Shown piece after piece: positions 1,105 through 38,460 of a stretch of 39,315 nt of DNA. This stretch comes from a virus, in IMG/VR virus record IMGVR_UViG_3300046311_000246, positions 1-39,315 of that record. One strand, given 5' to 3'. The position numbers and the translations under genes are program-made. Below the pieces are notes generated by a model that made no database searches, was not told the origin of the DNA, and saw only the letters and a list, made by a program, of their open reading frames with translations. Each line of letters opens with the position of its first letter. Positions within the stretch are counted from its first letter, which is position 1.

Positions 1105-1118
1105 TTTATGATAATTAG
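1105..1118 (-). promoter_or_regulatory. Putative phage late promoter of gp6 (CTAATTA motif)
   Basis: On the minus strand the site reads CTAATTATCATAAA, with CTAATTA at 1118-1112 and 18 nt to the gp6 start codon. It matches the CTAATTA-N3-TAAA pattern found before the other virion genes in this window. Confidence 0.6.
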
Positions 1119-1192: not shown

Positions 1193-2179
1193 ATGAAAAA
1201 CGGTATTTTTATTGGTCGGTTCTCCCCCCTCCACGAAGGTCATTATAGTTTGATAACAAGGGCTATTGAAAAATACAGTATTGATAAACTATATATTGGT
1301 ATTGGTAGTGCAAACATTTCTGGAACTATTAAGAATCCCATGACTGTTTTTGAAAGAGAAAGCTATATTAAACAATTTTTTATTCATAAGGGGGATATTT
1401 TTAACCTAGAAAAATTGTCATTTGAGTATATAGATGATTCTTATAATGAAGAACGTTGGCTATATTACATTGATAAAAAAATAAAAGATTATAAAATTGA
1501 TTATTTATTTTATCATGCAAAAAAAGATGGCTCAAGTTCATGGGTGGAAAATGTTTATTGTAAAAATGTTATTGATATTGAACCAATTACAGATATATCA
1601 GCAACACAAATTAGACAATCTATCATTGACAATCCTCTCGTGGAAAACTATTTTTACGACTTCAATCCATATAGGGAGTATGTAAAATTTATAAATGATT
1701 ATAATTCTAAATTTACCCATCCATACTGCAACAAAACAACTCATGTAACTGTTGATTTACTAATAAGAACAATAGATAATAACCATAATAATGCTATTGT
1801 ATTAATTAAACGAAATAAAGGCTTGGGTAGCGGTAAATATGCTTTAATTGGGGGGTTTGTTGAACCACATGAAACTTGTCTTGATGCAGTGATTAGAGAG
1901 TGTTACGAGGAAACAGGAATTATTATCCCTAAACAATTAATAGATGATGAATCAAAAGTATTTGATGCTCCAAATAGAAGTGATAGAGGACGTATCATCA
2001 CCCATGTTTATCAATGTTATTTGGAGTATTATAAATTGTTGGACATTATAAATAATTTTAAACCTAACGATGAAGTATCTGAAATAAAAATTGTATCTGA
2101 AGGAGAATTTAATTCAAATATTAAATATAACTCGTTTGAAGACCATTCTCTATTAGTCGATTATTGTATGAATTGGTAA
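1193..2179 (+). CDS. nadM: Bifunctional nicotinamide-nucleotide adenylyltransferase / Nudix hydrolase
   Basis: The 328-aa protein has two enzyme domains. Residues 1-150 form a nucleotidyltransferase with the GRFSPLHEGH motif (HxGH at 14-17) and the ISATQIR motif (135-141), the signature of NMN adenylyltransferases that make NAD from NMN and ATP. Residues 185-328 form a Nudix domain with a complete Nudix box at 221-243 (G221, E227, R235-E236, E239-E240, G242). In this fusion family the Nudix part usually acts on ADP-ribose; vibriophage KVP40 encodes such a protein (NatV). It is the first gene of an operon with the 166-aa unknown and NAMPT, a layout that fits nicotinamide-to-NAD salvage. Both active sites look intact although the NAMPT partner is broken. 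Start ATG is the only one near the sigma70-type promoter. Confidence 0.92.
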   Translation: MKNGIFIGRFSPLHEGHYSLITRAIEKYSIDKLYIGIGSANISGTIKNPMTVFERESYIKQFFIHKGDIFNLEKLSFEYIDDSYNEERWLYYIDKKIKDYKIDYLFYHAKKDGSSSWVENVYCKNVIDIEPITDISATQIRQSIIDNPLVENYFYDFNPYREYVKFINDYNSKFTHPYCNKTTHVTVDLLIRTIDNNHNNAIVLIKRNKGLGSGKYALIGGFVEPHETCLDAVIRECYEETGIIIPKQLIDDESKVFDAPNRSDRGRIITHVYQCYLEYYKLLDIINNFKPNDEVSEIKIVSEGEFNSNIKYNSFEDHSLLVDYCMNW

Positions 2180-2183
2180 AATT

Positions 2184-2684
2184 ATGAGTTATTGGTCTCA
2201 AATATCAGGATTAATTGTCGTCAGTGGATTTTTTGACATCAAAATCATTAATAAAAACTCTCCTTTTGGTAGCGAGGGTGGGTTGGATTTTACTATAAAC
2301 AGCTCCATAACAAACGATTATGGCACAAGTTATAGCAATAAACACCCTCAAGGAAAATCATATTTAAAATCAGAAATGTTCACCAATATATCATTTTCTG
2401 GAAATTTGAGAGATTTTGAATCTGATAAAATCGTAAGAGTTGAAAAATGGTTAAATGGAATAGCACAATATTTTACTAAATTAAGTGATACTAATAAATA
2501 TAAATATTTTAATGATGGTAAGGATTATCATCCTGAAAAACTAATGCCAATATTGTGTGATGTGAATATAAGAGTTTATAATCGAGATTTATTAGTACAT
2601 TTCTATCTTGATGAATCCTTTAAAGACAACACCACCATATACGAAATCTATAAAAGAGAAATCATAGAAAAGGAAATTATATGA
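2184..2684 (+). CDS. Conserved phage protein of unknown function in the NAD operon
   Basis: A 166-aa protein lying 4 nt after nadM and overlapping the NAMPT start by 4 nt (ATGA), so it is translated within the NAD operon. It has an N-terminal MSYWSQISGLIVVSG strand-like segment, a PFGSEGGLDF motif, and a later FSGNLRDFESD motif. I recall a loose family of small phage proteins with a GSEGxL...GDLRDY pattern and no known function; the match is from memory only. No signal peptide, membrane segment or catalytic motif is visible. Its place between two NAD enzymes could mean a linked role, or it could be a passenger. Confidence 0.6.
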   Translation: MSYWSQISGLIVVSGFFDIKIINKNSPFGSEGGLDFTINSSITNDYGTSYSNKHPQGKSYLKSEMFTNISFSGNLRDFESDKIVRVEKWLNGIAQYFTKLSDTNKYKYFNDGKDYHPEKLMPILCDVNIRVYNRDLLVHFYLDESFKDNTTIYEIYKREIIEKEII

Positions 2685-2911
2685 AACACAACCTATTATT
2701 AAACAGTGATGCTTACAAACATTCGCACAAAGATATGCTAGATAATGACATAGCATATATGAATAGTTATCTTGAATCTAGGGGAGGAACATTTAATAAA
2801 GTTTATTTCTTTGGGTTACAATATATCTTAAAAGAATATTTAACTACACCAATAACCCAAGCAGACCTTGATTATGCTTTTCCTATCCTCGATACAATAG
2901 GAACTGGATAG
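2681..2911 (+). pseudogene. Nicotinamide phosphoribosyltransferase, 5' fragment (interrupted)
   Basis: These 76 codons carry the N-terminus of NAMPT: LLLNSDAYKHSHKDML matches the conserved LLxTDSYKxxHxxxYP start, and VYFFGLQYILKEYL matches the FYGLQYILxKYL segment. The frame ends in TAG right after IGTG, where NAMPT proteins continue toward a GWxYI segment. The downstream remainder of the gene lies beyond the IS607-family element. Full-length NAMPT is about 460-490 residues, so this fragment cannot fold as an enzyme by itself. NAMPT joins nicotinamide to PRPP to give NMN, the substrate of the upstream adenylyltransferase. Confidence 0.88.
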
Positions 2912-2990
2912 TTACAAATTTCTATGAAAAATCAAGAAACTTGTTTTAGATGTAAACATCTTGGGTGAACTACAACACCCTCTATTTCAT
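2870..2990 (-). ncRNA. Predicted TnpB guide RNA (omega/reRNA) region, approximate limits
   Basis: Inferred only from position. In TnpB elements the guide RNA comes from the 3' end of tnpB through the transposon end, and its guide is the adjoining flank. Here tnpB stops at 2932, about 20 nt from the element end, so the RNA would overlap the tnpB 3' end and the guide would be the minus strand of roughly 2890-2910, that is NAMPT coding sequence. A short ATAG/CTAT inverted repeat (2908-2911 and 2922-2925) sits at the junction. No structure could be computed. Confidence 0.3.
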
Positions 2991-4158
2991 TCTTATTTTG
3001 GAATAATCCTGAAATTGCCTTTCTCATAATATTAAACGCACCGTTTAAATCAGAGTTTATTAATCTTCCATCCGAAGCACGAAACATTCCACGTTTAATT
3101 CTTTTACCTTTATATGTTTCATGTTTCTTGACATCTTCTAAGTCAAGAAAACTACACTTACTTGTATAAGATTCTTCGTGCTTGTTTACTACTATCCCAA
3201 CTAATTCACATTTATAAGTTATCATTTTAACAAATGTATCATGGGGTATGTTTACAAAATTTTGATTATTCTTACTACCAATATTGATTTCTTGTTTTTG
3301 GTTAATGTTTTTCCCAATAATTAAATTAGTAACATCATTGGAAACTAAATGATTAACCAATAATCGACTTGCTTTATGCAAATAATCGTTTATTTTATTG
3401 TTACGCTTAAATGTAAGCTTTTCTATGGATAATGAACTTTTCTTCCCTCCCTTTAATTTAATTTGAAGTTTTGCTTTCTTTTTATTATAGAACTGGTTCA
3501 TTGATTTTAATGGATTGCCGTTAATAATAAATGGATTTTTCAAATCTGAGAAAGCAACAGTTGCTAAGTTTTTTAAACCTAAGTCAATAGAAGCTATATT
3601 TCCAACATCCTCTTTAAATGGGGTAATTTCTTTATTATACACAACCTCCACAACATAATGTGATTTCCTAGGTACTACCCTGACTTGAGCTATATCGTTA
3701 AAATTTTCTATTTTACTTTTAATTCTAACATCACATCCTGAGAGTTTAATATATCCTTTTTTAAACTCTGTTTTTGAAATCGCTTGATTAGTAAATATTG
3801 TTACAAATCTTCCATCTGTTTTATCTAGGTAGCCAGGTATTTTCGGTTTACCTAAATATTTCTTTGGATTTTTCTTATAATCATTATTTGCTTTAAAAAA
3901 ACTTACAAAATTTTTATCAAGAACTTTTAATGTTTGTTGTACAACTTTAGCAGGTAATAATGAATAGCATTCCTTATATTTAGTTTTTAATTTCTTTTCA
4001 ACTGAATAATAATTTAAATATTTTTCATTTTTTATAAATTCCTGTCTTATTAAGAAAAGTCCCATATTATAAATATTCTTAGATTGAAAACATAATTCAT
4101 CTAAAGACTTAAATGTCTTATTTGATTTCTTTATAATATGTTTCTCTACTAATTGCAT
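2932..4158 (-). CDS. tnpB: TnpB, RNA-guided RuvC-like nuclease of an IS607-family element
   Basis: A full-length 408-aa TnpB. RuvC-I is IASIDLGLKNLA with D192, and RuvC-III is INSDLNGAFNI with D370. At the usual RuvC-II position the segment reads NLIIGKNINQKQ, with Gly282 where many TnpBs have the catalytic Glu. This belongs to the subgroup with IGKN...NNQNFVNIP...EESYTSK, where a nearby Glu (328 or 329) may serve instead. The CxxC zinc finger of typical TnpB is not seen: CSFLD replaces CSxCG. TnpB is an RNA-guided DNA nuclease that cuts at the donor or at unoccupied targets and so helps element retention; here the guide would point at NAMPT. Its start overlaps the tnpA stop, which suggests coupled translation. 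Confidence 0.9.
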   Translation of the reverse strand: MQLVEKHIIKKSNKTFKSLDELCFQSKNIYNMGLFLIRQEFIKNEKYLNYYSVEKKLKTKYKECYSLLPAKVVQQTLKVLDKNFVSFFKANNDYKKNPKKYLGKPKIPGYLDKTDGRFVTIFTNQAISKTEFKKGYIKLSGCDVRIKSKIENFNDIAQVRVVPRKSHYVVEVVYNKEITPFKEDVGNIASIDLGLKNLATVAFSDLKNPFIINGNPLKSMNQFYNKKKAKLQIKLKGGKKSSLSIEKLTFKRNNKINDYLHKASRLLVNHLVSNDVTNLIIGKNINQKQEINIGSKNNQNFVNIPHDTFVKMITYKCELVGIVVNKHEESYTSKCSFLDLEDVKKHETYKGKRIKRGMFRASDGRLINSDLNGAFNIMRKAISGLFQNKNEIEGVVVHPRCLHLKQVS

Positions 4159-4727
4159 GATAATTCTTGTATAAGTTTTTCAGTTTTACGTTTGGTTCGT
4201 CTTAGTCCGTATAATCGTGCAGTGAATGAAGTTATGATAGAAACAAAATCTTCCATTAAATCTTCTTTAATATTTTCTGGTGGGTTAATTATCTCAATAC
4301 GCCTATTATCATTTGCCATAAGTTTCTCAATATAATTTAAACCAAATCTACAGAATCTATCTGAATGTTCAACAACTATAACATTTATATTTCTATTAGT
4401 CAATAACTTTTCTAGTTTAGGTCTTTTATCATTTAACCCAGAACCAATTTCACAGACAGCCTGCTCAACAATATATCCTTTAGCACTACAATAATCTAAA
4501 AGTCTATTCTTTTGTTTTTCTAAATTATCTTTGTTTTCAGATGATGACACTCTTGCATATATAGCAACTTTATTTATCGTATCATTATCTTCTTCCACAA
4601 CAAAGTTCAAACCTGTTGTTAATTTTTCAATTTTGATAAGACCTTTATAAAACCAGTTCCAAACAGTCCTCACAGTAACACCATGCTTTTTAGCATAGTC
4701 AGATAACTTTAATATTTTTCTTGACAT
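4149..4727 (-). CDS. tnpA: TnpA, IS607-family serine recombinase
   Basis: The 192-aa protein has an N-terminal MerR-like helix-turn-helix (residues 1-45, KLSDYAKKHGVTVRTVWNW) followed by a small serine recombinase domain. AIYARVSSS carries Arg59 and the nucleophile Ser61, and SDRFCRFG is the second conserved arginine motif. The length and HTH-first domain order are those of IS607 transposases, which move DNA through a covalent 5'-phosphoserine intermediate. An AAGGAAG ribosome binding site precedes the ATG. The CTAATTA motif, the presumed phage late promoter, ends 18 nt before the start, the same spacing as for several virion genes. The gene looks intact. Confidence 0.92.
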   Translation of the reverse strand: MSRKILKLSDYAKKHGVTVRTVWNWFYKGLIKIEKLTTGLNFVVEEDNDTINKVAIYARVSSSENKDNLEKQKNRLLDYCSAKGYIVEQAVCEIGSGLNDKRPKLEKLLTNRNINVIVVEHSDRFCRFGLNYIEKLMANDNRRIEIINPPENIKEDLMEDFVSIITSFTARLYGLRRTKRKTEKLIQELSCN

Positions 4728-4738
4728 TTACTTCCTTT

Positions 4739-4752
4739 CTTTATATAATTAG
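4739..4752 (-). promoter_or_regulatory. CTAATTA late-promoter-like site upstream of tnpA
   Basis: The minus strand reads CTAATTATATAAAG, with CTAATTA at 4752-4746 and 18 nt to the tnpA ATG. It matches the phage motif in both sequence and spacing, although it lies inside the inserted element. Confidence 0.5.
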
Positions 4753-4821
4753 CTAATGTTGTTTTATGAAAAATTACATTATTTTTTCATAATATTTCAT
4801 AAGAAAATAAGAAGTTATTTA

Positions 4822-5580
4822 ATACCTGCCCTACAATTATTGATTGATTATTATAATTACCTACCCACTAATCCTATTAGCGTAAGAGCGTCTGAGCATA
4901 GCATCATGTGTCAACGAGGACGTTTAGGTGAACATGATATTGCTAGAAATATTGTATTATCACACCCCGATAAAATCACATCTATTGTAATTGATGCGTA
5001 CAACGATGAAAAATTCTTGGATTTTATTGGCACTGAATTAAAAGAAGATATTAAGAAAAGAACAGCACCCCTGATTATAAGACCTGATAGTAAGACACCG
5101 ATCGAAGCAATTATGATGTGCTTTAATAAATTGGAATATTATTTTGGTTCAACATTTAACTCTAAAGGGTATAAAGTTCTACCACCATATATCCGTATTA
5201 TTCAAGGAGATGGTATCAATATTGATTCTATTGATGAAATATTAATACAGTTAGTCGATAATAAAATATCCATTGATAATGTTATTTTCGGTATGGGAGG
5301 TGCGTTGTTGCAAAAAATTGATAGAGATACCCAAAAATTTGCAATCAAATGTAGTCAAGTAACATTAAAAGATGGTACTACAAGAAATGTTTTCAAAGAC
5401 CCTATTGGTGATAAGGGTAAGAAGTCTAAATCAGGTAAACTGGCATTAATTTATGATGATGGTTATCACACAATGAGAATACAAGAAATTCGAGGAAAAG
5501 AAAATTTATTGAAATTAGTTTATAAAAACGGTAAACTAATGAACGAACAATCATTTCCATTCAAGGTAACGTCAAACTAA
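4822..5580 (+). pseudogene. Nicotinamide phosphoribosyltransferase, 3' fragment
   Basis: About 250 codons of NAMPT C-terminal sequence. ISVRASEHSIM holds the catalytic-histidine motif (AAEHS in human NAMPT). Further matches are APLIIRPDSKTP (PLIIRPDSGNP in human), KVLPPYIRIIQGDGINID (KLLPPYLRVIQGDGVDIN), NVIFGMGGALLQKI, NVFKDPIGDKGKKSKSGKL and VYKNGKL. The first 20 or so codons of the open frame beginning at 4756 are element sequence. Compared with human NAMPT, about residues 90-230 are absent, including the HDFGYRG region that binds substrate, so excision of the element would not restore the enzyme. The fragment has no visible ribosome binding site. Confidence 0.88.
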
Positions 5581-7343: not shown

Positions 7344-7357
7344 TTTATGATAATTAG
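7344..7357 (-). promoter_or_regulatory. Putative phage late promoter of the gp54-like gene
   Basis: The minus strand reads CTAATTATCATAAA, identical over 14 nt to the gp6 site, with CTAATTA at 7357-7351 and 19 nt to the start codon. It overlaps the stop end of the upstream 211-aa gene. Confidence 0.6.
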
Positions 7358-7996: not shown

Positions 7997-8674
7997 TTAG
8001 AGTATAAATGTCCACTGATACCCTTTATGTGATTTACTTTTACCGATACAACATTTTGAAACAGTGCTAAAATCGAACCCGTCTAATTTTGTTGCATTAA
8101 CTGATGGGTATTCCTTTATAAGGACATCATCTTTATATTGACCAACTCTTTTCTTTGGTTTTGCATCACTCATTTTCTTTCTTGTTTCATCTGTATGTTT
8201 ATATCCTAAACTATTTGTATTACCTTTATATGCGTCACTTATTTTCTTTCTTGTTTCATCCGTCCTTTTTTTACCCCTATTACCATCACTCATTTTCTTT
8301 CTTGCTTCTTCAGTATGTTTATAACCAACAGAACCCTCTCCTCCTGCTGTCATATTCACTAAAGTACCAGTTCCTAAATCTCTTCTCCCATAAAGTAGAA
8401 TAAACTCAACTTCTTTTCTATTTGCTTCCTCTTCTGATAAGCCCTCTATCATTATTTCTATTCTATATTCAGTTTTATTAATCACATTATGCCAATGTGG
8501 ATTACTACGGTGTGTATTTTTACTTCTTTCATATTTTCCATCAATATTAGTTCCTTTACCTATATAAAATACTTCATTTTTATCTAAACGAATATGTCTG
8601 TATATGTAACAGAGTTTTTGTTCTTGATTATTTTTATTATTTATGGTACTATGACCATGTGGATTATTATCCAT
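7997..8674 (-). CDS. GIY-YIG homing endonuclease with NUMOD3 and NUMOD1-like motifs (HEG1)
   Basis: The 225-aa protein has three parts. The N-terminal GIY-YIG nuclease domain has YIYRHIRLDKNEVFYIGKG followed by YGRRDLGTGTLVN and an RKEVEF segment with the likely catalytic Glu. Next come three NUMOD3-type units (KHTEEARKKMSD, KRTDETRKKISD, KHTDETRKKMSD). The C-terminal NUMOD1/IENR1-like segment is VGQYKDDVLIKEYPSVNATK to KSHKGYQW. An in-frame GTG lies at 8704, but ATG 8674 is preferred because a GAGAGG ribosome binding site stands 8 nt before it and it aligns with the starts of HEG2 and HEG3. Such free-standing endonucleases cut phage genomes lacking the gene and spread by repair. Confidence 0.85.
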   Translation of the reverse strand: MDNNPHGHSTINNKNNQEQKLCYIYRHIRLDKNEVFYIGKGTNIDGKYERSKNTHRSNPHWHNVINKTEYRIEIMIEGLSEEEANRKEVEFILLYGRRDLGTGTLVNMTAGGEGSVGYKHTEEARKKMSDGNRGKKRTDETRKKISDAYKGNTNSLGYKHTDETRKKMSDAKPKKRVGQYKDDVLIKEYPSVNATKLDGFDFSTVSKCCIGKSKSHKGYQWTFIL

Positions 8675-8734
8675 GCTGATGTCCTCTCTGACGTTAGAAC
8701 CCACAGATGTTTCAGCATCGTGGTGGGTATAATT
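8675..8734 (-). promoter_or_regulatory. Structured 5' leader of HEG1 (two hairpins)
   Basis: Hairpin 1 (8699-8728) pairs ACCCAC with GTGGGT and GATG with CATC. Hairpin 2 (8681-8692) pairs GTC with GAC and holds the AGAGAG ribosome binding region in its loop. Both hairpins recur before HEG2 and HEG3 with compensatory base changes. Confidence 0.55.
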
Positions 8735-8837: not shown

Positions 8838-8851
8838 CTAATTACTTTAAA
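8838..8851 (+). promoter_or_regulatory. Putative phage late promoter of the gp8-like gene
   Basis: Reads CTAATTACTTTAAA, with 24 nt from the end of CTAATTA to the start codon; an AAGGAAT ribosome binding site lies between. Confidence 0.6.
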
Positions 8852-10298: not shown

Positions 10299-10844
10299 AT
10301 GTCTGAAAAAAATTACACATTACTAACTTGGGCTTACAATGATAGTGGTGTTTGTATTGGCGATGTAGAACTTGCCAAAGAATTATTCCAATTAGGGATT
10401 GATCCACAACCAGCAAAACCTAGAAATCAAGTATGTAGTATTGGTTGGTGTGAACATGAACAAAAATGGTACGGTTGGTCACATCGTGCGAGATGGGGCT
10501 TTGGTATTGGTTCTGGGGTTAAAAAAGGCGACATAGCATATAATCCTGCTAACCTAGATGATTGGATAGAGAATAAAGTAGCGTTTGAGGTTGATGAGTA
10601 TCAAACACTTATAAGAACTGAAATAAAACCCAATCAAAAAGTCGATCTTGATGATAGTGGGGATAGAACGGTTCTTACTATTACTACACGTTACAATAAT
10701 GAAGTACCGATCGAAAGTCGCAGAAATACTATTAATCATGATCATTTTGTAGTTCCTGAAACATTTGGACGTGGGGAGTGGACAGCACAAACTCTTGAAG
10801 ATGCAAAACAGATGGCTATAGACTTCGCAGATAACACAGGATAA
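10299..10844 (+). CDS. Conserved phage protein of unknown function
   Basis: A 181-aa soluble protein preceded by ATGGAGAA (ribosome binding site) and a sigma70-type promoter. It contains a conserved-looking VCSIGWCEHEQKWYGWSHRA segment followed by FGIGSGVKKGD. I recall this segment from several large phages, without a function. An acidic middle and the C-terminal TLEDAKQMAIDFAD helix follow. It sits with two small genes between virion genes, which suggests an early accessory cluster. Confidence 0.6.
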   Translation: MSEKNYTLLTWAYNDSGVCIGDVELAKELFQLGIDPQPAKPRNQVCSIGWCEHEQKWYGWSHRARWGFGIGSGVKKGDIAYNPANLDDWIENKVAFEVDEYQTLIRTEIKPNQKVDLDDSGDRTVLTITTRYNNEVPIESRRNTINHDHFVVPETFGRGEWTAQTLEDAKQMAIDFADNTG

Positions 10845-11396: not shown

Positions 11397-11410
11397 CTAA
11401 TTAAGTAAAA
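11397..11410 (+). promoter_or_regulatory. Putative phage late promoter of the giant baseplate gene
   Basis: Reads CTAATTAAGTAAAA, with 23 nt from the end of CTAATTA to the start codon. Confidence 0.55.
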
Positions 11411-11426
11411 CATAGTGGAATAGATA

Positions 11427-14400
11427 ATGCCAATTACCCCTTACGAATCGTCCCCATACCATGACGATTTTGACCAAGCAAAAAACTTTTATAGAATATT
11501 ATTCTCGGGGGGTAGACCAGTCCAACCAAGAGAATTAAATCAATTACAAACAATTATAAATAATCAATTTGATCAATTAACAAGTCATTTTTTCAAAGAT
11601 GGCTCTCCTGTTGTTGGTGGTAATGTTGTTTTTAATAATGAATATTCCTTTGTTAAATTAGAATCAACATTTACACATTCCGCTACAAGTTATACTGCTA
11701 CGAATTATGCAAACGAATATGTGGGTACGATATTAACTGGATTGACATCAGGCGTTAAAGCACGAGTATTACAAGTTGTACAGCCTGTTGGTTCTGATCC
11801 GCTAACAATATATGTTCGATATGAAGGTTCAGGTACAGACAATGAAACAAAGACGTTCTCACCATCGGAAGTATTATCATCGAATGGTTCGCCAGTAAGA
11901 TATGCCAAAGTAAAAAACTTAGCATCTGTTCCAACTGGGTATGGGGCTAGTTTTTCTGTCGATGAGGGTTATTGGTATGTTAATGGTGCTTTGGTGTATG
12001 CACCGTTTCAATCTATTATTTTAGGTAAATATTCCCCCGATAATATTAATACGAGATTATCTTATAAAATATCCGAACAGACAGTAACATCTGCTACAGA
12101 CAGTTCATTGTTTGATAATACTTTGGGTGCTACTACACTTGGGGGTACAGGTGCAGATAGACAAAAAATAAGTCTTGCATTAATACGAGAAGATTTAGAT
12201 TATGATAATAGAGATCCGTTAAACAATAAACTTATACAATTAATAGTTATTGAAAATTCAAGAGTAAAGAAAAGTGCAAAGACTGAATATTCCGATTTGG
12301 GAGATACTTTAGCCCAAAGAACTTATGATGAATCGGGTAATTACACCGTTAATAACTTTGGTATTAACATTAAAGAACATTTAAATGATGGTAGTAATTT
12401 AGGACAATATACTGCTGAGGGAGGTGGCACTGCTACTAAACTTGCTGTTGGTATTGAAAAGGGGAAAGCTTATGTATATGGTTATCCCATTGAAATAGAA
12501 GATACCATTTATTTAGATGTTGATAAATCAAGAGATGTTGAATATAAAAATAATGCGTCCCTAACAGTAAAATATGGTAATTATATTGAAATTAATACTG
12601 TTGTATCAATACCTGATATACAAAATTTTACAACAGCGAATTTAAGAAATTCAGGGAATACGACTATAGGAACAGCAAGAATTAGACACATTCAATATGT
12701 TTCTGGAAGTGGTAGCAGTGCTAAATATAGGTTATATATTTTTGATGTTATAATGAATAGCGGACAGTCCTTTTCTAATGTGGATAACATTCAACAAACT
12801 GTACCTTATGGAGGATCTGCTTTTACTGCTGATGTCATATCTGCATCTTCCTTATTTGATACTGACACAAATAAAATGTTATTTGATTTACCGTTCGCTA
12901 CAACTAAAACATTAAGAGATACATTAGGGAATATAGAATCTATTTACGATGCTAAAGTATTATTAAGTGGAACTGTTACAACAGGTTCTGTTACTATCAA
13001 TACTGGCAATGCTAATATTACGTTCAATTCGTCATCTACATCTGAGTATATTATAACACGAGATGATAATGGTACGATTATATCACCAACATCCATTACT
13101 ATAAATTCTCCTGCCAATACTGCAACACTAACATTTACAGGACAAGATGGTAATCTTATTTATGTATATGCCCCCGTTACAAAAGTTAATACAAGTGCAA
13201 GAGAAAAAACTAAAACTCTCACCACTGGTGCAACAGTCAATCTTAGTTCGCCCGATGTAACATCCAGTGGTGTTTTCTATTCTCTTGGTAAGTGTGATGT
13301 ATTACGCATTAATTCCATTACTAATGGTGGTGTTAATATAACAAATAGATTTACCCTAGATAACGGACAAAGAGATAATTTTTACACAGTATCAAGGGTT
13401 CAACTAAAATCAGGGTTTAGTCAACCAAGTGGAACAACCACAGTAAATTTTGATTATTTCACTCATGGTGCGGGGGATTATTTTTCAGTGGATTCGTATG
13501 CCAATATTGATTATGAGGATATACCATCTTACAAGGGGAAATCCTTACGAGATTTATTGGACTTTAGACCTGTTAAAGATTATGCAGGGGTTAATTTTAC
13601 ATCTACAGGAGCTTCTAAGGGGGATGTTATTGAACCTAATAGTGTATTTCGTTCTGATATGCAATTTTACTTACCACGCATTGATAAAATATTCATTAAT
13701 AAAAGTGGTAAATTTGGCATTGTAAAGGGTATATCTTCTGTACCTCCCCAAGTACCAAATAACCCAAAAGACAGCATGGTAATATATACCTTAACGATTA
13801 ACCCCTTTACCTTTGGTGCGTATGATGTCATTCCTAACCTGGTTGATAATTCTCGCTCCACTATGGAAGATATTAGAAGATTGAAGAAGCGTGTTGATAA
13901 ATTAGAATATTACGTTGCATTATCATTACTTGAAAAAGAGACTTCAAATTTACAAATATTTGACGATTCAGGATTAGAAAAGTATAAAAACGGATTTATT
14001 GCAAATTCTTTTTATGGACATAATTTATCATACACAACACATCCCGACTATTCTTGTTCGATTGATAAGATTAAAGGACATTTAAGACCACAGTTTTATC
14101 AAGACAACGTAAAGATGTATTATAATTCAGGAGCGTCAACTAATGTGCAAAAAACAGGGGCGTTATTAACATTACCATATAGCAAAGTGGTGGAGGAAAG
14201 ACAACCATTTGCCACTGAAGCTATCAATGTAAACCCATACAATGTGTTTTTGTGGTCTGGTACAATGACTTTATCCCCCAGTTCTGATGAATGGAAAGAA
14301 ACCAAAAGAAGACCTGACGTTATTTTTAACAACGAGGGTATATATGATTCTCTTGTAAATATTATTGATGAAACAAATGCTAATGGTACACTATGGAATG

Positions 14401-16742: not shown

Positions 16743-16964
16743 ATGGCAAGAAAAAAAGCGAAAGTATTAGATAACCCCGATTTAGAAAAAGATTTAGAAA
16801 CTGGGGTTATCATTAACAACAATAAGAGTAATTTAATTAACCGCAAGATGGTTAAAAGGAATATCTTACAAAAGGAAAATGATTTACAAAAATATAAAGA
16901 TTTATGTGAAACTCTAATTCAACGCCTTGAAATCATTGAAGACAAAATTCAACAATCTAATTAA
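16743..16964 (+). CDS. Small lysine-rich coiled-coil protein between virion genes
   Basis: A 73-aa basic protein. The N-terminal half is Lys/Asn-rich (ARKKAKVLDNPDLEKDLE) and the C-terminal half is a continuous coiled coil (about residues 40-72). Its position between the giant baseplate gene and the tail fibre, with its own late motif, suggests a virion or assembly role such as a fibre connector or chaperone. This is inference; no family is recognised. Confidence 0.6.
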   Translation: MARKKAKVLDNPDLEKDLETGVIINNNKSNLINRKMVKRNILQKENDLQKYKDLCETLIQRLEIIEDKIQQSN

Positions 16965-20562: not shown

Positions 20563-20982
20563 ATGGATATACATTTTAACCCAAATGAAATCATGCTAAA
20601 AATAGAGAGAATTGATTTAGCCATGGTTCATTTTAAAGAAACTCTATCAATCATTAAAAGTAATGATGAGGATATTACTAATATTGAAAAACATATTATT
20701 AATATCACAAATGAATTGAGGGATATTCGTAAAGATGTTAAATATATTGAGGATAAACTTCACACTAAACTTATTTCAATAGAAGATAACAACAATAAAC
20801 TACATAAAAAATTAGAAACTGTTATAGAAAAAATACAATCTGAAAAAGAAAACAATACTTTAAATCTTCTCAATAAAAATAAATTAGTTACATTATTGGT
20901 TTCCATAATATCCTTATTGTTTATATCATCTAATGAGAAGACCCAAGAAATATTAACTAAGATTTTAGCAATGATATTATAA
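20563..20982 (+). CDS. Coiled-coil protein with C-terminal membrane segment (lysis candidate)
   Basis: A 139-aa protein 5 nt after the fibre gene. Residues 1-100 are a charged helix with heptad-like spacing (repeated NEIMLKIERID, NITNELRDIRKDVKYIEDKL). A hydrophobic segment follows at about 107-122 (LVTLLVSIISLLFISS), then a short amphipathic tail. A coiled coil plus one membrane helix next to a small polytopic membrane protein after the fibre gene recalls the position of lysis genes in T4 (holin t follows the fibre genes). It could be a spanin-like or holin-regulating protein, or a fibre-related membrane protein; no family is recognised. Confidence 0.55.
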   Translation: MDIHFNPNEIMLKIERIDLAMVHFKETLSIIKSNDEDITNIEKHIINITNELRDIRKDVKYIEDKLHTKLISIEDNNNKLHKKLETVIEKIQSEKENNTLNLLNKNKLVTLLVSIISLLFISSNEKTQEILTKILAMIL

Positions 20983-20984
20983 CA

Positions 20985-21284
20985 ATGAACATATTTTTTT
21001 ATCTCTGTATTTTTATATTCGTAGCCAATATTATAATTGGGTTGTACATATCAAAGCAAATCATAGATAAAACCCACCCTCTTATATACAGTTTTTTGTT
21101 ATACACCATTACAATGTCATTATATTTTACGATAGTAACGTGTAGTTGTCATTTTATTCTTCTAGAACATAATATAATTCAGATAATAACAAAAGTTACA
21201 ATATCGGTATTTATTCTTTTATTTTACTACATTTTGTTATTTAAATCGAAAACTTTAAGTTCGGTAAAAAATTTGACAAATTAA
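20985..21284 (+). CDS. Small polytopic membrane protein, putative holin
   Basis: A 99-aa, very hydrophobic protein with three likely membrane helices (about residues 3-22, 32-54 and 64-88) and a short positive C-terminus (FKSKTLSSVKNLTN). Size and topology fit a class I holin, and its place directly after the tail fibre and a coiled-coil membrane protein supports a lysis role. No endolysin lies in the window, so this stays a topology-based guess. The TTGACA box of the phoH promoter overlaps its end. Confidence 0.5.
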   Translation: MNIFFYLCIFIFVANIIIGLYISKQIIDKTHPLIYSFLLYTITMSLYFTIVTCSCHFILLEHNIIQIITKVTISVFILLFYYILLFKSKTLSSVKNLTN

Positions 21285-21301
21285 AATAAAGCATCTATAA
21301 T
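21273..21301 (+). promoter_or_regulatory. Consensus sigma70-type promoter of phoH
   Basis: TTGACA (21273-21278), a 17-nt spacer and TATAAT (21296-21301) form a perfect consensus 23 nt before the phoH start, partly inside the end of the upstream gene. Confidence 0.85.
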
Positions 21302-21324: not shown

Positions 21325-22050
21325 ATGGTTCGACAATACAAATCAAAAACTAAAACATCTCTATTAATAGATAGTGATGAAAAAATACCAAATACAGGTA
21401 AATACAACCCCCCTTTTGAACTAACAAGTAAACAGAAAAATATAAAAACCGCTTTTTCCAAGAATCATATAATTCTTGATGGTTCAGCAGGTACTGGTAA
21501 AACATACATTTCTCTTTATTTATCATTACTTGCTCTACAAGAAAAAAAGTTTGAAAAAATCATTATTGTGAGAAGTCCACAACAGACGGTGGAGGTAGGT
21601 TTCTTACCAGGTGGTATAGATTTTTCAACGGACGGTGCTAAATTAGCACCTTTTTTAATACCCTATGAAAACATTGTAAATGAAATTGCAGGTAAGGGTT
21701 TTTGGTTTAGTAATTTTGGTAAAAGAATTATATTTGAACCTGGTGTTGCAATAAGAGGATTAACTTTTGACAATGCTATTGTTTTTGTTGATGAAGCACA
21801 GAATTTTAATTTTCATGCGTTGGACAGCATTATTACAAGACTTGGTAAAAATAGTAAATTCATCATGGCGGGGGATTACTATCAAACAGATTTAAAGAAA
21901 TCCCATGATAAAAATGGTTTTTTAGACTTTTTAAATATCCTAGAGAATGTTGATTACTTTACAAGATTTACCTTTGCACATAAAGATATTGTGCGAAGTG
22001 AATTGGTAAAATCATATATTATTGCAAAAGAGAACTATCAAAAACCCTAA
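21325..22050 (+). CDS. phoH: PhoH-like P-loop ATPase
   Basis: The 241-aa protein has Walker A GSAGTGKT (53-60), Walker B AIVFVDEAQN (151-160), the LTSKQKNIKTAF segment before the P-loop and IIIVRSPQQTVEVGFLPG after it, all typical of PhoH. The conserved FIMAGDYYQTDL (GDxxQxDL) motif follows. PhoH-like proteins are widespread in phages; they are ATPases related to superfamily 1 helicases and are linked to RNA metabolism or phosphate stress, with unsettled phage function. It has its own consensus promoter, so it is probably expressed separately from the late genes around it. Confidence 0.92.
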   Translation: MVRQYKSKTKTSLLIDSDEKIPNTGKYNPPFELTSKQKNIKTAFSKNHIILDGSAGTGKTYISLYLSLLALQEKKFEKIIIVRSPQQTVEVGFLPGGIDFSTDGAKLAPFLIPYENIVNEIAGKGFWFSNFGKRIIFEPGVAIRGLTFDNAIVFVDEAQNFNFHALDSIITRLGKNSKFIMAGDYYQTDLKKSHDKNGFLDFLNILENVDYFTRFTFAHKDIVRSELVKSYIIAKENYQKP

Positions 22051-22057
22051 TTTTCTA

Positions 22058-22086
22058 TTGACAATTTTACTTTTTTATGATTTAAT
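22058..22086 (+). promoter_or_regulatory. Sigma70-type promoter of the flotillin-like gene
   Basis: TTGACA (22058-22063), a 17-nt spacer and TTTAAT (22081-22086), 36 nt before the start codon. Confidence 0.7.
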
Positions 22087-22122: not shown

Positions 22123-23469
22123 ATGACTATTTCATTTTTTTATATTATAAGTGGCTTAATTATAGTTACTTTATGTGCATTGGGTGCTTGGGTAACAAGC
22201 CTAAGGCGTGTCGTAAGCACTAATGAAGTGCATATAATCCAAAGCTCAAAAACGACAATTTCATTTGGTAAAGATGAAATGTCAGGTAACAGTTATTATG
22301 AATTTCCAAGTTGGATACCCGTTATAGGTATAAATGTTATTAAATTGCCAGTCAGTGTTTTTAGTTTAAGATTAAATAATTATGAAGCTTATGATAACGG
22401 AAGATTACCATTCGTATTAGACCTAGAGGCTTTTTTTAGAATTGAAAATTCAAATGTTGCCGCTCAACGAGTATCGAGTGTGCAAGAATTAAATAATCAA
22501 TTAACATCAATTTTACAAGGAGCTGCACGAACTATTCTTGCTAGTAAAACTATTGAAGAGATTATGCAAGGTCGTTCTGAGTTTGGAGATGCTTTCACAA
22601 AAGAAGTTAATGAACAATTAAAGGCTTGGGGTGTGGTCACTGTTAAAAATATCGAATTGATGGATATTCGAGATAGCAGAGAAAGTAATGTCATTCAAAA
22701 TATTATGGATAAGAAAAAATCTGAAATAGAAAAAGAGAGTAGAATTGTTGTTGCTTCAAATAAAAAAATAGCTCAAAATGCAGAGATTGATGCTAATAGG
22801 GAAGTCGAATTAAACAAGCAAATGGCTAGTGAACAAATTGGTATTCGTACAGCTGAGAAAGATAAAGCTATTGGTATATCGCAAGAAAAAACCAACCAAG
22901 ACATAAAGGAACAACAAAAAATAACTGCTGAAAAAAGTATGGAAGTTTCGAGAATAGAAAATGTTAAATCTGCGGAGATTAACAAAGACGTTAATATTGT
23001 TAAGGCGGAGGAACAACGTCAAACAGAAATTGTAAAAGCTGAAGGTGAAAAGCAAAAAACTGTCTTGATAGCGGAAGGTAGATTAGAAGCACAAAAACGT
23101 GAAGCTGAAGCTGTGTTGGCTAATGGTAAAGCAAAAGCGGAATCTGAAAAACTATTACAACTTGCTCCTGTAGAGGCTCAAATTGTCCTTGCTAAGGAAA
23201 TTGGTGATAATGGCAACTATCAAAAATACTTAATAACCATAAGACAGATTGAATCGTCCCAGGCTATAGGTATAGAACAAGCAAAAGCATTAGATAAAGC
23301 TGATATTAAAGTTATAGCAAATAGTGGTACTGTTACCAATGGCATCAATTCTATTGGTGATTTATTTACTTCGCATGGCGGTACTTCCATTGCATCTTCT
23401 TTGGAGGGATTAGCACAAAGCCCAATAGGAAAACAAATTATTGATAAGATAACATCAATTAAGAACTAA
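22123..23469 (+). CDS. Flotillin-like SPFH/Band 7 membrane protein
   Basis: The 448-aa protein has one N-terminal membrane helix (about residues 4-24) and an SPFH domain (about 28-185, with VVSTNEVHIIQSS, LEAFFRIENSNVAAQRV, ILQGAARTILASKTIEEIMQ and AWGVVTVKNIELMDIRD). A long Ala/Glu/Lys/Gln coiled coil follows (about 190-345, with flotillin-type EAEAVLANGKAKAESEK), then a short Gly/Ser-rich end. Flotillins form membrane-bound oligomers that organise protein complexes and proteases. In a phage it might alter the host membrane or act in superinfection control or lysis timing, but the sequence does not show which. It has its own promoter and a strong terminator, so it is an independent transcription unit set between late genes. 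Confidence 0.9.
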   Translation: MTISFFYIISGLIIVTLCALGAWVTSLRRVVSTNEVHIIQSSKTTISFGKDEMSGNSYYEFPSWIPVIGINVIKLPVSVFSLRLNNYEAYDNGRLPFVLDLEAFFRIENSNVAAQRVSSVQELNNQLTSILQGAARTILASKTIEEIMQGRSEFGDAFTKEVNEQLKAWGVVTVKNIELMDIRDSRESNVIQNIMDKKKSEIEKESRIVVASNKKIAQNAEIDANREVELNKQMASEQIGIRTAEKDKAIGISQEKTNQDIKEQQKITAEKSMEVSRIENVKSAEINKDVNIVKAEEQRQTEIVKAEGEKQKTVLIAEGRLEAQKREAEAVLANGKAKAESEKLLQLAPVEAQIVLAKEIGDNGNYQKYLITIRQIESSQAIGIEQAKALDKADIKVIANSGTVTNGINSIGDLFTSHGGTSIASSLEGLAQSPIGKQIIDKITSIKN

Positions 23470-23489: not shown

Positions 23490-23524
23490 CCCCCTCAAAG
23501 GATTATTCTTTTGGGGGGTTTTTA
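23490..23524 (+). terminator. Intrinsic terminator after the flotillin-like gene
   Basis: CCCCCTCAAAG pairs with CTTTTGGGGGG (11 positions with one mismatch and one G-T pair) around a 7-nt loop, followed by a T run. It is the only clear rho-independent terminator in the window. Confidence 0.9.
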
Positions 23525-23533
23525 TTATAAAAC

Positions 23534-23547
23534 CTAATTAATTTAAA
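23534..23547 (+). promoter_or_regulatory. Putative phage late promoter of the neck operon
   Basis: Reads CTAATTAATTTAAA, with 18 nt from the end of CTAATTA to the gp13-like start, directly after the terminator. Confidence 0.65.
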
Positions 23548-34045: not shown

Positions 34046-35005
34046 CTATAAATATTTCCAATAATAACTTTTGTGTGATTTACGTTTACCTAAACAACAA
34101 GCACTGACATTACTGGGGATATAACCATCAGCTCTGGTAGCTTCAATGGAATGATATACTTTTATAAGAATACCGTCCTTATATTGTCCTACTGGTTTAC
34201 AGTATGACGCATGACGCAGATTTTCTTTAGCCTCCTCAGACATTTTCTTACTTTTATGTTTATCGCTAATTTTCTTTCTAACCTGTTCCGATTGACAGGC
34301 ATTCTCAAATCCATATTTTTCCAAATTAGTCTTTTTTACCTTATTACGAACCTCCTCTAAAAGAAATACGTTTTCTACCCCATATTTTTCTAAAAAACTA
34401 TTTTTTCTTTTTTTATTTATAAGATCATACCCTACAGAACTTTCTGTGCCATACCTTATTACATTAGTTTTATTCCTTTTTTCTTTAACGTACTCGCTAC
34501 TTCTAGCATCCTCAACACCATACTTTTTTAAATTAGTTTCCCTAGTTTTACTTGCAACAGAATCTGATAATAAAGGACATTCCACCCCATATCTCTCTAC
34601 GTTTGTATTACGTCTTTTCTCCTTAGATTCCTCCGTTGTTAATGCCCCATGACTACCCTGTCCACCGCTTGTTTTATTTACTAAAGTTCCTGTTCCTAAA
34701 TCAACTCTTCCATATAATTTAATAAAATATTTTTCCTTTTTACCTAACATCTTAACAGGAACGTCTTTTAGCAAGATTTCAACTCTATATTCTGTATTAT
34801 CAACTACTTCACTCCATTCGTCACTCCTATCCCTTGAATAAGCACGTTCATATTTTCCGTTATCCGTGGTACTTATACCTATGTAAAACGGCATATTAGT
34901 ATCAAGTCTTATATGACGATAAACATACCCAAATTTAATTTTATCTTGATTTTTTGTTTCTTCTGTGTTATCATTAACACATGAATTAGCGTTGCTAATT
35001 ATCAT
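34046..35005 (-). CDS. GIY-YIG homing endonuclease with five KYGVE repeats and NUMOD1-like end (HEG2)
   Basis: The 319-aa protein has a GIY-YIG domain (FGYVYRHIRLDTNMPFYIGIS, then YGRVDLGTGTLVN) like HEG1 and HEG3. Its middle differs, with five DUF723-like DNA-binding units of the form KTNLxKYGVExxxxSexVxxK, then a KKMSEEAKENLRHA unit. The NUMOD1/IENR1-like end (VGQYKDGILIKVYHSIEATR to KSHKSYYW) is shared with its paralogues. ATG 35005 is preferred over the in-frame ATG 35053 because AAGGAAGG stands before it and it aligns with the HEG3 start. It lies between the DUF4325 gene and uvsX. Confidence 0.85.
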   Translation of the reverse strand: MIISNANSCVNDNTEETKNQDKIKFGYVYRHIRLDTNMPFYIGISTTDNGKYERAYSRDRSDEWSEVVDNTEYRVEILLKDVPVKMLGKKEKYFIKLYGRVDLGTGTLVNKTSGGQGSHGALTTEESKEKRRNTNVERYGVECPLLSDSVASKTRETNLKKYGVEDARSSEYVKEKRNKTNVIRYGTESSVGYDLINKKRKNSFLEKYGVENVFLLEEVRNKVKKTNLEKYGFENACQSEQVRKKISDKHKSKKMSEEAKENLRHASYCKPVGQYKDGILIKVYHSIEATRADGYIPSNVSACCLGKRKSHKSYYWKYL

Positions 35006-35074
35006 AACCTGGTGTCCTTCCTTGACATTAGAGCCAACAGATGCTGAACACATCGTGTTGGCGTTTTTATATAA
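35006..35074 (-). promoter_or_regulatory. Structured 5' leader of HEG2 (two hairpins)
   Basis: Hairpin 1 (35033-35062) pairs GCCAACA with TGTTGGC and GATG with the CATC across the loop. Hairpin 2 (35013-35027) pairs TGTC with GACA and holds AAGGAAG, the ribosome binding site, in its loop. The leader is open in frame with HEG2 from ATG 35053 (SVGSNVKEGHQV). Confidence 0.6.
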
Positions 35075-36766: not shown

Positions 36767-37364
36767 TGAAAATGGGGAATACACCCCCCATTATTTAAAA
36801 GAATATAGAAAATATTTGAAATATACATTTTTAGGATATGACAATAGTCCCGATAAGAATGAATATTTTAAACATAAAGAATACAAGGAATTTGTCGATT
36901 TAGATAAATTATTTAAAAACATTAAAAAAGTAGAAAGAAAAGATATGATACAAAAAGGAAGACCTAAAAAGGTTAATGTAAAAGAAGAAGTACAAGAAAT
37001 CAGAGAGGTAGTTCAAGAAACCCCAACGATTATTGATACCCAGGAAACTGTGGTGGTGCAACCAACAGTACAAAGAACTAAATATTCGATAAGACCCATT
37101 CAATATTTTACAAAGTTTGAGGACTTAAATCGAGCATTTCATTTAATATTACATACCCTCAATGAAATTGGGTTTATAAAAATAAATGCGGAAGAATTTA
37201 AGAAATTGTCGGAAAACCCCACAAACGCACAAAAGACGAACTTATTATGTTATTCTATATTATTTGATAAACTATCCCAAAATGGTTTATTTCAATATAC
37301 AGACGAGGAATATTCAAAACTTCCCGATATGTTTAAAAAAGGTATTTTATTATACAATGCTTGA
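36753..37364 (+). CDS. Hypothetical protein with an AT-hook-like segment
   Basis: A 203-aa protein. ATG 36753 with an AAAGG ribosome binding site is chosen over a TTG at 36729. It has an N-terminal charged helical part (1-60), a QKGRPKKVN segment like a single AT-hook, a Val/Thr/Gln-rich linker, and a C-terminal helical domain (IRPIQYFTKFEDLNRAFHLI to the end). The layout suggests a DNA-binding linker protein. It overlaps the next gene by 8 nt. Confidence 0.55.
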   Translation: MAVFDENGEYTPHYLKEYRKYLKYTFLGYDNSPDKNEYFKHKEYKEFVDLDKLFKNIKKVERKDMIQKGRPKKVNVKEEVQEIREVVQETPTIIDTQETVVVQPTVQRTKYSIRPIQYFTKFEDLNRAFHLILHTLNEIGFIKINAEEFKKLSENPTNAQKTNLLCYSILFDKLSQNGLFQYTDEEYSKLPDMFKKGILLYNA

Positions 37365-37779
37365 TGTTTGGTATTTTAAGGATACCATATTTACAGTATC
37401 TGATATAGGGGATTACACAGGATTTGTATATCAGATACACAATCTTACCAATGATAAAAAATATATTGGTAAGAAAGAATTTTATAAGGTTATAAAAAGA
37501 CCCCCTTTAAAAGGTAAAAAGAATAAAAGAAAAGCTACTGTATTTACAGATTGGCAAACCTATACAGGTTCATCAAACGATTTAAATAATGATATAGGAT
37601 TAGGGCATATAATAAGAAAAGAAATACTAAAATTATGCACCTCTAAAAGCTCCACAACATATTATGAATTAAAAGAACAAATGTTTGTTGATGCTTTATT
37701 TAAAGATGATTACTATAATCAGATAATAAATATTCGTTTATCAAGTATCTGTAAAAATAATATTTTAAAAGATTTATAA
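37357..37779 (+). CDS. GIY-YIG-like conserved phage nuclease
   Basis: A 140-aa protein. ATG 37357 is chosen because homologues I recall start with a YDVWxFxD-type sequence (here LDVWYFKDTIFT); the frame upstream is only a shadow of the previous gene. DYTGFVYQIHN and KKYIGKKEF form a GIY-YIG-like core, followed by DWQTYTGSSNDL and YYELKEQMFVDALF, where the Glu is a candidate metal ligand. This small single-domain family is widespread in T4-like phages, is not mobile in context, and has no clear role. Its stop overlaps the HEG3 stop by 6 nt on opposite strands, so HEG3 was probably inserted at this gene's 3' end and may have changed its last residues. Confidence 0.7.
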   Translation: MLDVWYFKDTIFTVSDIGDYTGFVYQIHNLTNDKKYIGKKEFYKVIKRPPLKGKKNKRKATVFTDWQTYTGSSNDLNNDIGLGHIIRKEILKLCTSKSSTTYYELKEQMFVDALFKDDYYNQIINIRLSSICKNNILKDL

Positions 37780-38460
37780 ATATCCCCACTCATAACCTCC
37801 ATGGGTTTTACGTTTACCTAAACAACAATCACCTACATTAGCAAGAATAAAACCATCTAATTTAGTTGATGTTAATGATGGGTATTCTTTTATAAGGATT
37901 CCATCTTTATATTTACCTACTCTTTTCTTTGGTTTTGCATCGCTCATTTTTTTTCTTGATTCTTCAGTGCGTTTTTTACCCGTGTTAGATTTTATCCGTT
38001 TTGTTATGTGTTCTTCAGTCTGTTTTTTACCTAAACAATATTTATGTCCTTTATTTGCATCACTTTGTTTCTTTCTTGTTTCTTCAGAGCGAATAGCACC
38101 ACTAGAACCCTCTCCACCATCAGTCATATTCACTAAAGTACCTGTCCCCAAATCCCTTCTTCCATATAATTTAATGAAATATTTTTCTTTTTTATTGACT
38201 TCCTCTTCTGATAATTCTTCCAACATTATTTCTACTCTATACTCACATTTATTAACCACATTATGCCAATGTGGATTGACCCTATCTTTAGAGTATGCTC
38301 TCGAATATCTACCGTTCGTATTTGTTCCTTTACCTATATAAAACACTTCATTTCTATCAAGTCTTATATGACGATAAACGTAACCTAATTTATTTTTTGA
38401 TTGATTTTTATTTGAATATGTGATACTATTTTCACATGATTTAGCAATGCTAATTATCAT
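37774..38460 (-). CDS. GIY-YIG homing endonuclease with NUMOD3 units (HEG3)
   Basis: The 228-aa protein has a GIY-YIG domain (LGYVYRHIRLDRNEVFYIGKG, then YGRRDLGTGTLVN), NUMOD3-type units (RSEETRKKQSD, KQTEEHITKRI, KRTEESRKKMSD) and the NUMOD1-like end (VGKYKDGILIKEYPSLTSTK to KTHGGYEW). It is nearest to HEG1 in layout. The AGGAGG ribosome binding site lies 9 nt before ATG 38460. A 16-codon upstream frame (38507-38457) ends in TGA overlapping the ATG, so its translation may be coupled. It lies between the GIY-YIG-like gene and the 71-aa gene. Confidence 0.87.
   Translation of the reverse strand: MIISIAKSCENSITYSNKNQSKNKLGYVYRHIRLDRNEVFYIGKGTNTNGRYSRAYSKDRVNPHWHNVVNKCEYRVEIMLEELSEEEVNKKEKYFIKLYGRRDLGTGTLVNMTDGGEGSSGAIRSEETRKKQSDANKGHKYCLGKKQTEEHITKRIKSNTGKKRTEESRKKMSDAKPKKRVGKYKDGILIKEYPSLTSTKLDGFILANVGDCCLGKRKTHGGYEWGYL

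What the first reader, a model, noticed from the sequence alone, without database searches (positions are those of the whole stretch)
22123..23469. Phage-encoded flotillin (SPFH) as a self-contained transcription unit
A complete membrane-anchored flotillin with its own sigma70-type promoter and the window's only strong terminator is set between tail and neck genes. Phage flotillins are rarely discussed; it might reorganise the host membrane, affect HflKC-type protease control, or block superinfection.
Basis: partly seen in the sequence, partly recalled or inferred. Interest (0 to 1): 0.6.

Follow-up and report, generated by a model that had tools for sequence, protein, structure and literature searches.

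The report
Early-expressed flotillin gene in phages
This T4-like phage carries an intact gene for a membrane-scaffold protein (a flotillin) with its own on and off signals; closely similar copies occur in many otherwise unrelated large phages, so viruses seem to use it early in infection to reorganise or protect the host's inner membrane, but what it does there has never been tested.

Summary
ORF 22123-23469 is a complete 448-aa SPFH/Band-7 protein with an N-terminal membrane helix, a sigma70-like promoter (11 of 12 consensus bases) and the window's strongest terminator by far (-18.7 kcal/mol; next -10.3). It lies between tail-fibre/PhoH genes and neck genes. The nearest phage copies show the same promoter-gene-terminator arrangement far above chance, beside different neighbours.

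It is a flotillin-type cage protein, not HflK/C and not the FloT equivalog. Relatives (40-82% identity) occur in 48 sequenced phages, all of 120 kb or more, about 70 viral contigs and 45 bacterial contigs. In the same phage pairs the flotillin is 73-80% identical while core genes are 20-37%: it moves between phages. It is under strong purifying selection (dN/dS about 0.06-0.1), so it is not a silent host fragment. Phage structural genes here carry a different upstream motif (CTAATTA, candidate late promoter), so the flotillin looks like an early gene inside a late cluster. Coil length varies almost only in 11-residue steps.

Best reading: an early 'moron' cassette making a cytosol-facing membrane cage for host takeover or counter-defence. 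The role is inferred, not shown. Phage SPFH genes have been listed since 2006: a new member of a known kind.

The parts
22058..22086 (+). sigma70-like promoter TTGACA-17-TTTAAT of the flotillin gene
   Evidence: 11/12 match; 7 of the 15 other members of the nearest clade have a 10-12/12 match 60-75 nt before the start
22123..23469 (+). flotillin (SPFH/Band 7) gene, 448 aa
   Evidence: Band_7 E=1.2e-16; 48 phage records at 43-56% identity; IMG/VR copies at 40-82%; dN/dS about 0.06-0.1
22129..22185 (+). N-terminal membrane anchor (residues 3-21), followed by conserved LRRVV
   Evidence: hydrophobicity and charge bias; helix 2-26 in the model
22213..22761 (+). SPFH (Band 7) domain
   Evidence: Pfam match; model matches solved SPFH domains, Z up to 16
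22690..23166 (+). long helical wall segment (residues about 190-348) whose length varies by 11 residues in the family
   Evidence: model helix 190-362; 67 of 71 length differences are multiples of 11
23491..23518 (+). intrinsic terminator stem, with U tract following
   Evidence: dG -18.7 kcal/mol, best in window
23534..23540 (+). CTAATTA motif before the neck operon (candidate late promoter), marking the boundary of the flotillin unit
   Evidence: 12 of 15 CTAATTA sites lie within 40 nt upstream of a start, 28-fold enriched
21273..21301 (+). 12/12 sigma70 promoter of phoH; transcripts may run on through the flotillin gene
21325..22050 (+). phoH-like gene directly upstream, no strong terminator between
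   Evidence: PhoH PF02562 E=6.8e-40

Best explanation
A moron-type cassette (own early promoter, one gene, own terminator) inserted in the late tail/neck cluster of a T4-like phage. Host RNA polymerase with sigma70 transcribes it early. The product is a phage-adapted flotillin: one N-terminal membrane helix, the SPFH domain and a long hendecad helix on the cytosolic side, assembling with itself into a closed basket on the inner membrane (about 38-41 subunits if the published coil-length rule holds). The basket walls off and stabilises a patch of host inner membrane and the proteins in it. The most likely use is early host takeover or counter-defence: keeping the membrane working, or shielding it from membrane-targeting immune effectors or a second phage. 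Shown by sequence: gene, promoter-like and terminator-like sites, fold, conservation, transfer between phages, early-type promoter class. Inferred: expression timing, topology, cage assembly, subunit number. Speculative: the protected target.
For: Fold: best Foldseek matches are the Flot1/2 cage chains 9bq2 and 9l3g (E down to 2e-12), then stomatin, HflK/C, prohibitin, QmcA, erlin; profile hits to Flotillin-1 at 1e-12. Solved flotillin cages are hole-free baskets that isolate membrane (PMC11260169). Early class: consensus sigma70 boxes precede Tad6 (Thoeris inhibitor, PF25188 E=5.5e-39), phoH, flotillin and uvsX, while CTAATTA precedes two baseplate wedge genes, tail tube, tail fibre, neck and the giant ORF at 11427. 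Unit conserved with different neighbours. None of 80 neck loci of other phages carries it. Moves between phages: 73-80% identity against 20-23% for DnaB and 27-37% for baseplate wedge in distant phage pairs. Selection: dN/dS 0.06-0.11.
Against: No expression, localisation or phenotype data. Tad6 and the NAD-salvage genes are several kb away, and distance between flotillin and NAMPT in other phages is not closer than chance (P 0.10-0.20). No PADLOC hit for the flotillin itself (PADLOC holds defence families, so this says little). Full-length model pTM is only 0.46 and residues 274-286 are below pLDDT 50. CTAATTA as a late promoter is inferred from position only. The -10 box has T where A is most conserved.
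Confidence: 0.5

Rival explanations
1. Superinfection exclusion: the flotillin cage changes the inner membrane or traps an injection partner so that a second phage's DNA cannot enter.
For: Early-type promoter, membrane anchor, stand-alone gene carried between phages; the Vi01-like phage PhiSH19 lists an SPFH gene next to an annotated superinfection-exclusion gene (PMC3220722).
Against: Known exclusion proteins such as T4 Imm are small (from general knowledge); a very large cage protein is an expensive way to do this; no test.
Confidence: 0.2
2. Modulator of the host FtsH-HflK/C protease or of host flotillins: phage subunits co-assemble with or displace host SPFH proteins.
For: Same fold class as HflK/C, 7vhq and 9cz2. 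In locus L011 a 266-aa SPFH gene lies directly upstream of the flotillin, like an hflK-hflC pair.
Against: Predicted cytosolic topology in 64 of 71 members whereas HflK/C are periplasmic (PMC12048511); 21 of 24 carrier records searched hold only one SPFH gene.
Confidence: 0.12
3. Scaffold that anchors or encloses a phage compartment (replication or assembly site) at the membrane of cells infected by large phages.
For: All 48 close phage records have genomes of 120-635 kb; flotillin cages can bridge two membranes (PMC11260169).
Against: No conserved partner gene next to it; carriers are very different phage types.
Confidence: 0.12
4. Virion or DNA-entry component, as others have guessed for phage SPFH proteins.
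For: Position between tail and neck genes; one SPFH protein (RisingSun gp131) was seen in a virion proteome with a single 95% peptide (PMC6034870); an adsorption or entry role was proposed for GIB1 (PMC13239085).
Against: Early-type promoter and strong terminator separate it from the CTAATTA late genes on both sides; absent from 80 other neck loci; found in quite different contexts in other phages, among tRNAs in Thalassavirus.
Confidence: 0.06
5. Neutral passenger: a captured host gene or fragment without function.
For: Related genes exist in bacteria, and several Helicobacteraceae copies are broken.
Against: Full-length open frames in nearly all viral copies, dN/dS 0.06-0.11, recurring promoter and terminator, nested in a phage-only clade.
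Confidence: 0.03

Closest known systems
Eukaryotic Flotillin-1/2 cage (PDB 9bq2, 9l3g)
   Same: N-terminal membrane-facing SPFH region, very long wall helix, helical C-terminal region; best fold matches
   Different: One gene, so a homo-oligomer is expected; a true N-terminal membrane helix; about 20% identity
Bacterial FloT/FloA (NCBIfam NF058507 for FloT)
   Same: Membrane anchor, SPFH domain, long EA-rich coil; weak NF058507 match, E=1.8e-7
   Different: 30.6 bits against an equivalog cut-off of 700; no NfeD gene found in the window or in 22 other carrier phage records searched
HflK/HflC
   Same: SPFH cage fold
   Different: No hflK-hflC pair in the window, predicted cytosolic rather than periplasmic, longer coil
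Phage SPFH/Band-7 genes listed before (44RR ORF098c, Aeh1 ORF064c, RB43 ORF139c, PhiSH19, RisingSun gp131, Xanthomonas phage X1, Brevundimonas phages)
   Same: SPFH genes in large phages; X1 and the Brevundimonas phages are members of this same family
   Different: The T4-like ones and PhiSH19 (263 aa) did not come up with this query at E 1e-5; none has been studied functionally in the papers found

Membership tests
SPFH / Band 7 superfamily | SPFH domain by curated profile | tested here: met
   PF01145 61.7 bits against cut-off 23.6
SPFH / Band 7 superfamily | SPFH fold in a structural model | tested here: met
   SPFH domain matches 4fvg Z 15.8, rmsd 1.6 over 109 residues
Flotillin | Long EA-rich coil of flotillin size plus helical C-terminal domain | tested here: met
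   Model helix 190-362 and C-terminal helices; Flot1/2 top Foldseek hits along about 415 columns, though part of the coil is low confidence
Flotillin | Oligomeric membrane cage or microdomain scaffold | not testable with these tools
   needs biochemistry or cryo-EM
FloT equivalog (NF058507) | Score above curated cut-off | tested here: not met
   30.6 against 700 bits
Flotillin-NfeD operon | NfeD partner gene | tested here: not met
   No PF01957 match in the window or 22 carrier phage records; in two bacterial carriers NfeD lies beside another SPFH gene. The window is a fragment
HflK/HflC | Periplasmic SPFH domain | tested here: inconclusive
   Charge bias predicts cytosolic (64 of 71); prediction only
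HflK/HflC | Adjacent pair of SPFH genes | tested here: not met
   One SPFH gene in the window
Phage moron | Own promoter and own terminator between phage genes | tested here: met
   Consensus sites in sequence; transcription itself not tested
Phage moron | Absent at the same site in other phages | tested here: met
   0 of 80 neck loci carry it; those phages are distant (neck identity about 30%) and many loci are short
Phage moron | Base composition unlike the phage | tested here: not met
   GC 33.5% against 31.0% in the rest: long resident
Superinfection exclusion protein | Blocks a second phage | not testable with these tools
   needs a plaque assay

The most novel reading that the evidence does not exclude
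A phage-specialised flotillin family, spread as an early self-contained cassette among unrelated large phages, builds a sealed cytosolic basket on the host inner membrane as a counter-defence device. Cage size is tuned in evolution by adding or removing 11-residue wall repeats, about two subunits per repeat if the published coil-length rule applies.
Probability: 0.25. Interest if true: 0.8.

Novelty: new member of a known kind. Interest (0 to 1): 0.47.

Why it matters
Bacterial flotillins are hard to study because single mutants show almost no phenotype (PMC13086221). A phage version that is stand-alone, strongly selected, expressed from its own promoter and present in cultured Vibrio, Xanthomonas and Brevundimonas phages offers a tractable system: delete it from a lab phage and ask what fails. 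It would also show whether phages protect or remodel the host inner membrane with a protein cage.

Tried and rejected
HflK/C pair: only one SPFH gene in the window. NfeD partner: none found. Conserved neighbour that would give a function: none beyond close relatives; the loci sit beside clamp and clamp-loader-like, UvdE-like, tRNA, NAD-salvage, ATP-grasp or neck genes. Physical linkage to NAD-salvage genes: 24 of 52 carrier records have a PF04095 gene, but it is no closer to the flotillin than chance, and no size-matched baseline was run. T4 late promoter TATAAATA: no more frequent than chance and never within 40 nt of a start. PHROG family: none for the window protein; 8 of 71 members match a 'lipoprotein' family weakly. 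PADLOC: none. Plasmids: no relative. Two literature searches for an existing study of phage flotillins found only annotation-level mentions.

Full report
What is there. The window is a 39,315-base viral record from a T4-like myophage: baseplate wedge, tail tube, DNA-end protector, neck Ad2/Hc2, tail-sheath stabiliser, DnaB-like helicase, UvsX and thymidylate synthase were identified. At 22123-23469 lies an intact 448-codon ORF with a Band_7/SPFH domain, E=1.2e-16. It has no PHROG family and scores far below the FloT equivalog cut-off.

Transcription unit. A TTGACA-17-TTTAAT box (11/12) ends 36 nt before the start codon, and the strongest hairpin-plus-U-tract in the window (-18.7 kcal/mol, next -10.3) follows the stop. 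In the nearest phage clade the same architecture recurs: 7 of 16 members have a >=11/12 promoter (random segments 1.25%), and 10 of 16 have a terminator of <=-10 kcal/mol (random 1%). One sub-group (L004-L007, L010), beside T4-type clamp genes in L010, has neither and is probably in an operon. The upstream phoH gene has its own perfect promoter and no strong terminator after it, so both single-gene and phoH-flotillin transcripts are likely.

Promoter classes. Sigma70-consensus boxes lie before Tad6 (10299), phoH, flotillin, uvsX and a few others. The 7-mer CTAATTA is the most enriched word upstream of genes: 12 of its 15 sites lie within 40 nt of a start, most at 17-24 nt, 28-fold over background, and it stands before baseplate, tail-tube, tail-fibre, giant-ORF and neck genes. 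I read CTAATTA as this phage's late promoter (inference). The flotillin therefore looks like an early gene embedded in a late cluster, and its terminator (to 23518) keeps early transcription out of the neck operon, whose CTAATTA begins at 23534.

Family and spread. tblastn finds 48 phage records at 43-56% identity, in Demerecviridae (Thalassavirus), Brevundimonas jumbo phages, Xanthomonas phages, an Erwinia phage and a 635-kb phage, all with genomes of 120 kb or more, plus one distant hit in a human-gut phage. IMG/VR gives about 70 contigs at 40-82%. Bacterial contigs give 45 loci at 42-60% in Campylobacterota, Alphaproteobacteria, Neisseriaceae, Bacteriovorax and candidate phyla. In bacteria it is patchy: 7 of 121 genomes in the family of the Helicobacter cinaedi genome, three of them with stops or split, and 1 of 198 in the family of the Cypionkella genome. 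The careful tree puts the window in a phage-only clade (100/99) and needs about six phage-bacterium changes, at least four forced by well-supported branches (first tree). The flotillin of the window is 73-80% identical to those of L007, L010, L011 and L068, while DnaB is 20-23% identical in the carriers where it was found and the baseplate wedge 27-37%. It therefore travels between phages. GC is close to its present genome (33.5 against 31.0%) and synonymous sites are saturated against relatives, so it is not a recent arrival. dN/dS between relatives is 0.06-0.11. None of 80 neck-region loci of other phages carries it.

Structure. AlphaFold from 71 family sequences (mean pLDDT 79, pTM 0.46) gives a membrane helix (2-26), SPFH domains and a continuous helix 190-362 with a low-confidence stretch at 274-286. 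Foldseek's best matches are the Flot1/2 cages, then stomatin, HflK/C, prohibitin, QmcA, erlin and the vault. Wall length between two conserved anchors differs from the window by multiples of 11 in 67 of 71 members, and the other four differ by 7 modulo 11. This is a hendecad signature. A published regression links coil length to subunit number (y=0.1782x+10.22; PMC12624060); applied to a wall of about 156-173 residues it gives about 38-41 subunits, and about two more per 11-residue repeat. That is extrapolation. Charges flanking the anchor favour a cytosolic SPFH domain in 64 of 71 members, opposite to HflK/C.

Function. Flotillin cages are hole-free baskets attached to membrane (PMC11260169) and bacterial flotillin can stabilise unfolded proteins at the membrane (PMC11222466). 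With an early-type promoter, a stand-alone cassette and promoter-class company that includes a Thoeris inhibitor, the best reading is an early host-takeover or counter-defence protein acting on the inner membrane. The exact target is unknown; superinfection exclusion is the main rival. A virion role and a silent host remnant are disfavoured.

Novelty. SPFH genes in T4-like phages were listed in 2006 (PMC1524935) and annotated since. No functional study was found. What is added here: the definition of one family with its spread, the recurring promoter-gene-terminator cassette, the contrast with late genes, and the 11-residue length steps.

Noticed in passing
window, e.g. 1112-1118(-), 7351-7357(-), 8838-8844, 11397-11403, 16957-16963, 23534-23540: CTAATTA is strongly enriched 17-24 nt before start codons of mostly structural genes: a candidate late-promoter motif that differs from T4's TATAAATA.
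   Followed up: partly
window 10299-10844: A Tad6-type Thoeris inhibitor (PF25188, E=5.5e-39) with its own near-consensus sigma70 promoter, inside the tail cluster.
   Followed up: no
window 2681-5580: A NAMPT-like gene appears split: N-terminal part 2681-2911 and C-terminal part 4756-5580, with a serine resolvase and a TnpB-like gene (IS607-type element) between them.
   Followed up: partly
window 1193-2179 and 4756-5580; 24 of 52 flotillin-carrying viral records: NAD-salvage genes often co-occur with this flotillin in the same phage genome, without being significantly close to it. No size-matched baseline was run.
   Followed up: partly
L011 7189-7986 and 8001-9347: A 266-aa SPFH gene sits directly upstream of the flotillin, like an hflK-hflC pair; phage X1 and the L088 contig also carry a second short SPFH gene elsewhere.
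   Followed up: no
Helicobacteraceae genomes (G074, G081, G084): Bacterial copies of the family are patchy and partly decayed by stops or splits, unlike the mostly intact phage copies.
   Followed up: no
window 7997-8704(-), 34046-35053(-), 37774-38460(-), 37186-37779: Three HNH/homing endonucleases and a SegE-like GIY-YIG endonuclease in 39 kb.
   Followed up: no
window 20985-21284 and 20563-20982: A small multi-helix membrane protein and a coiled-coil protein with a C-terminal hydrophobic helix, both without confident relatives in the libraries, lie just before phoH.
   Followed up: no
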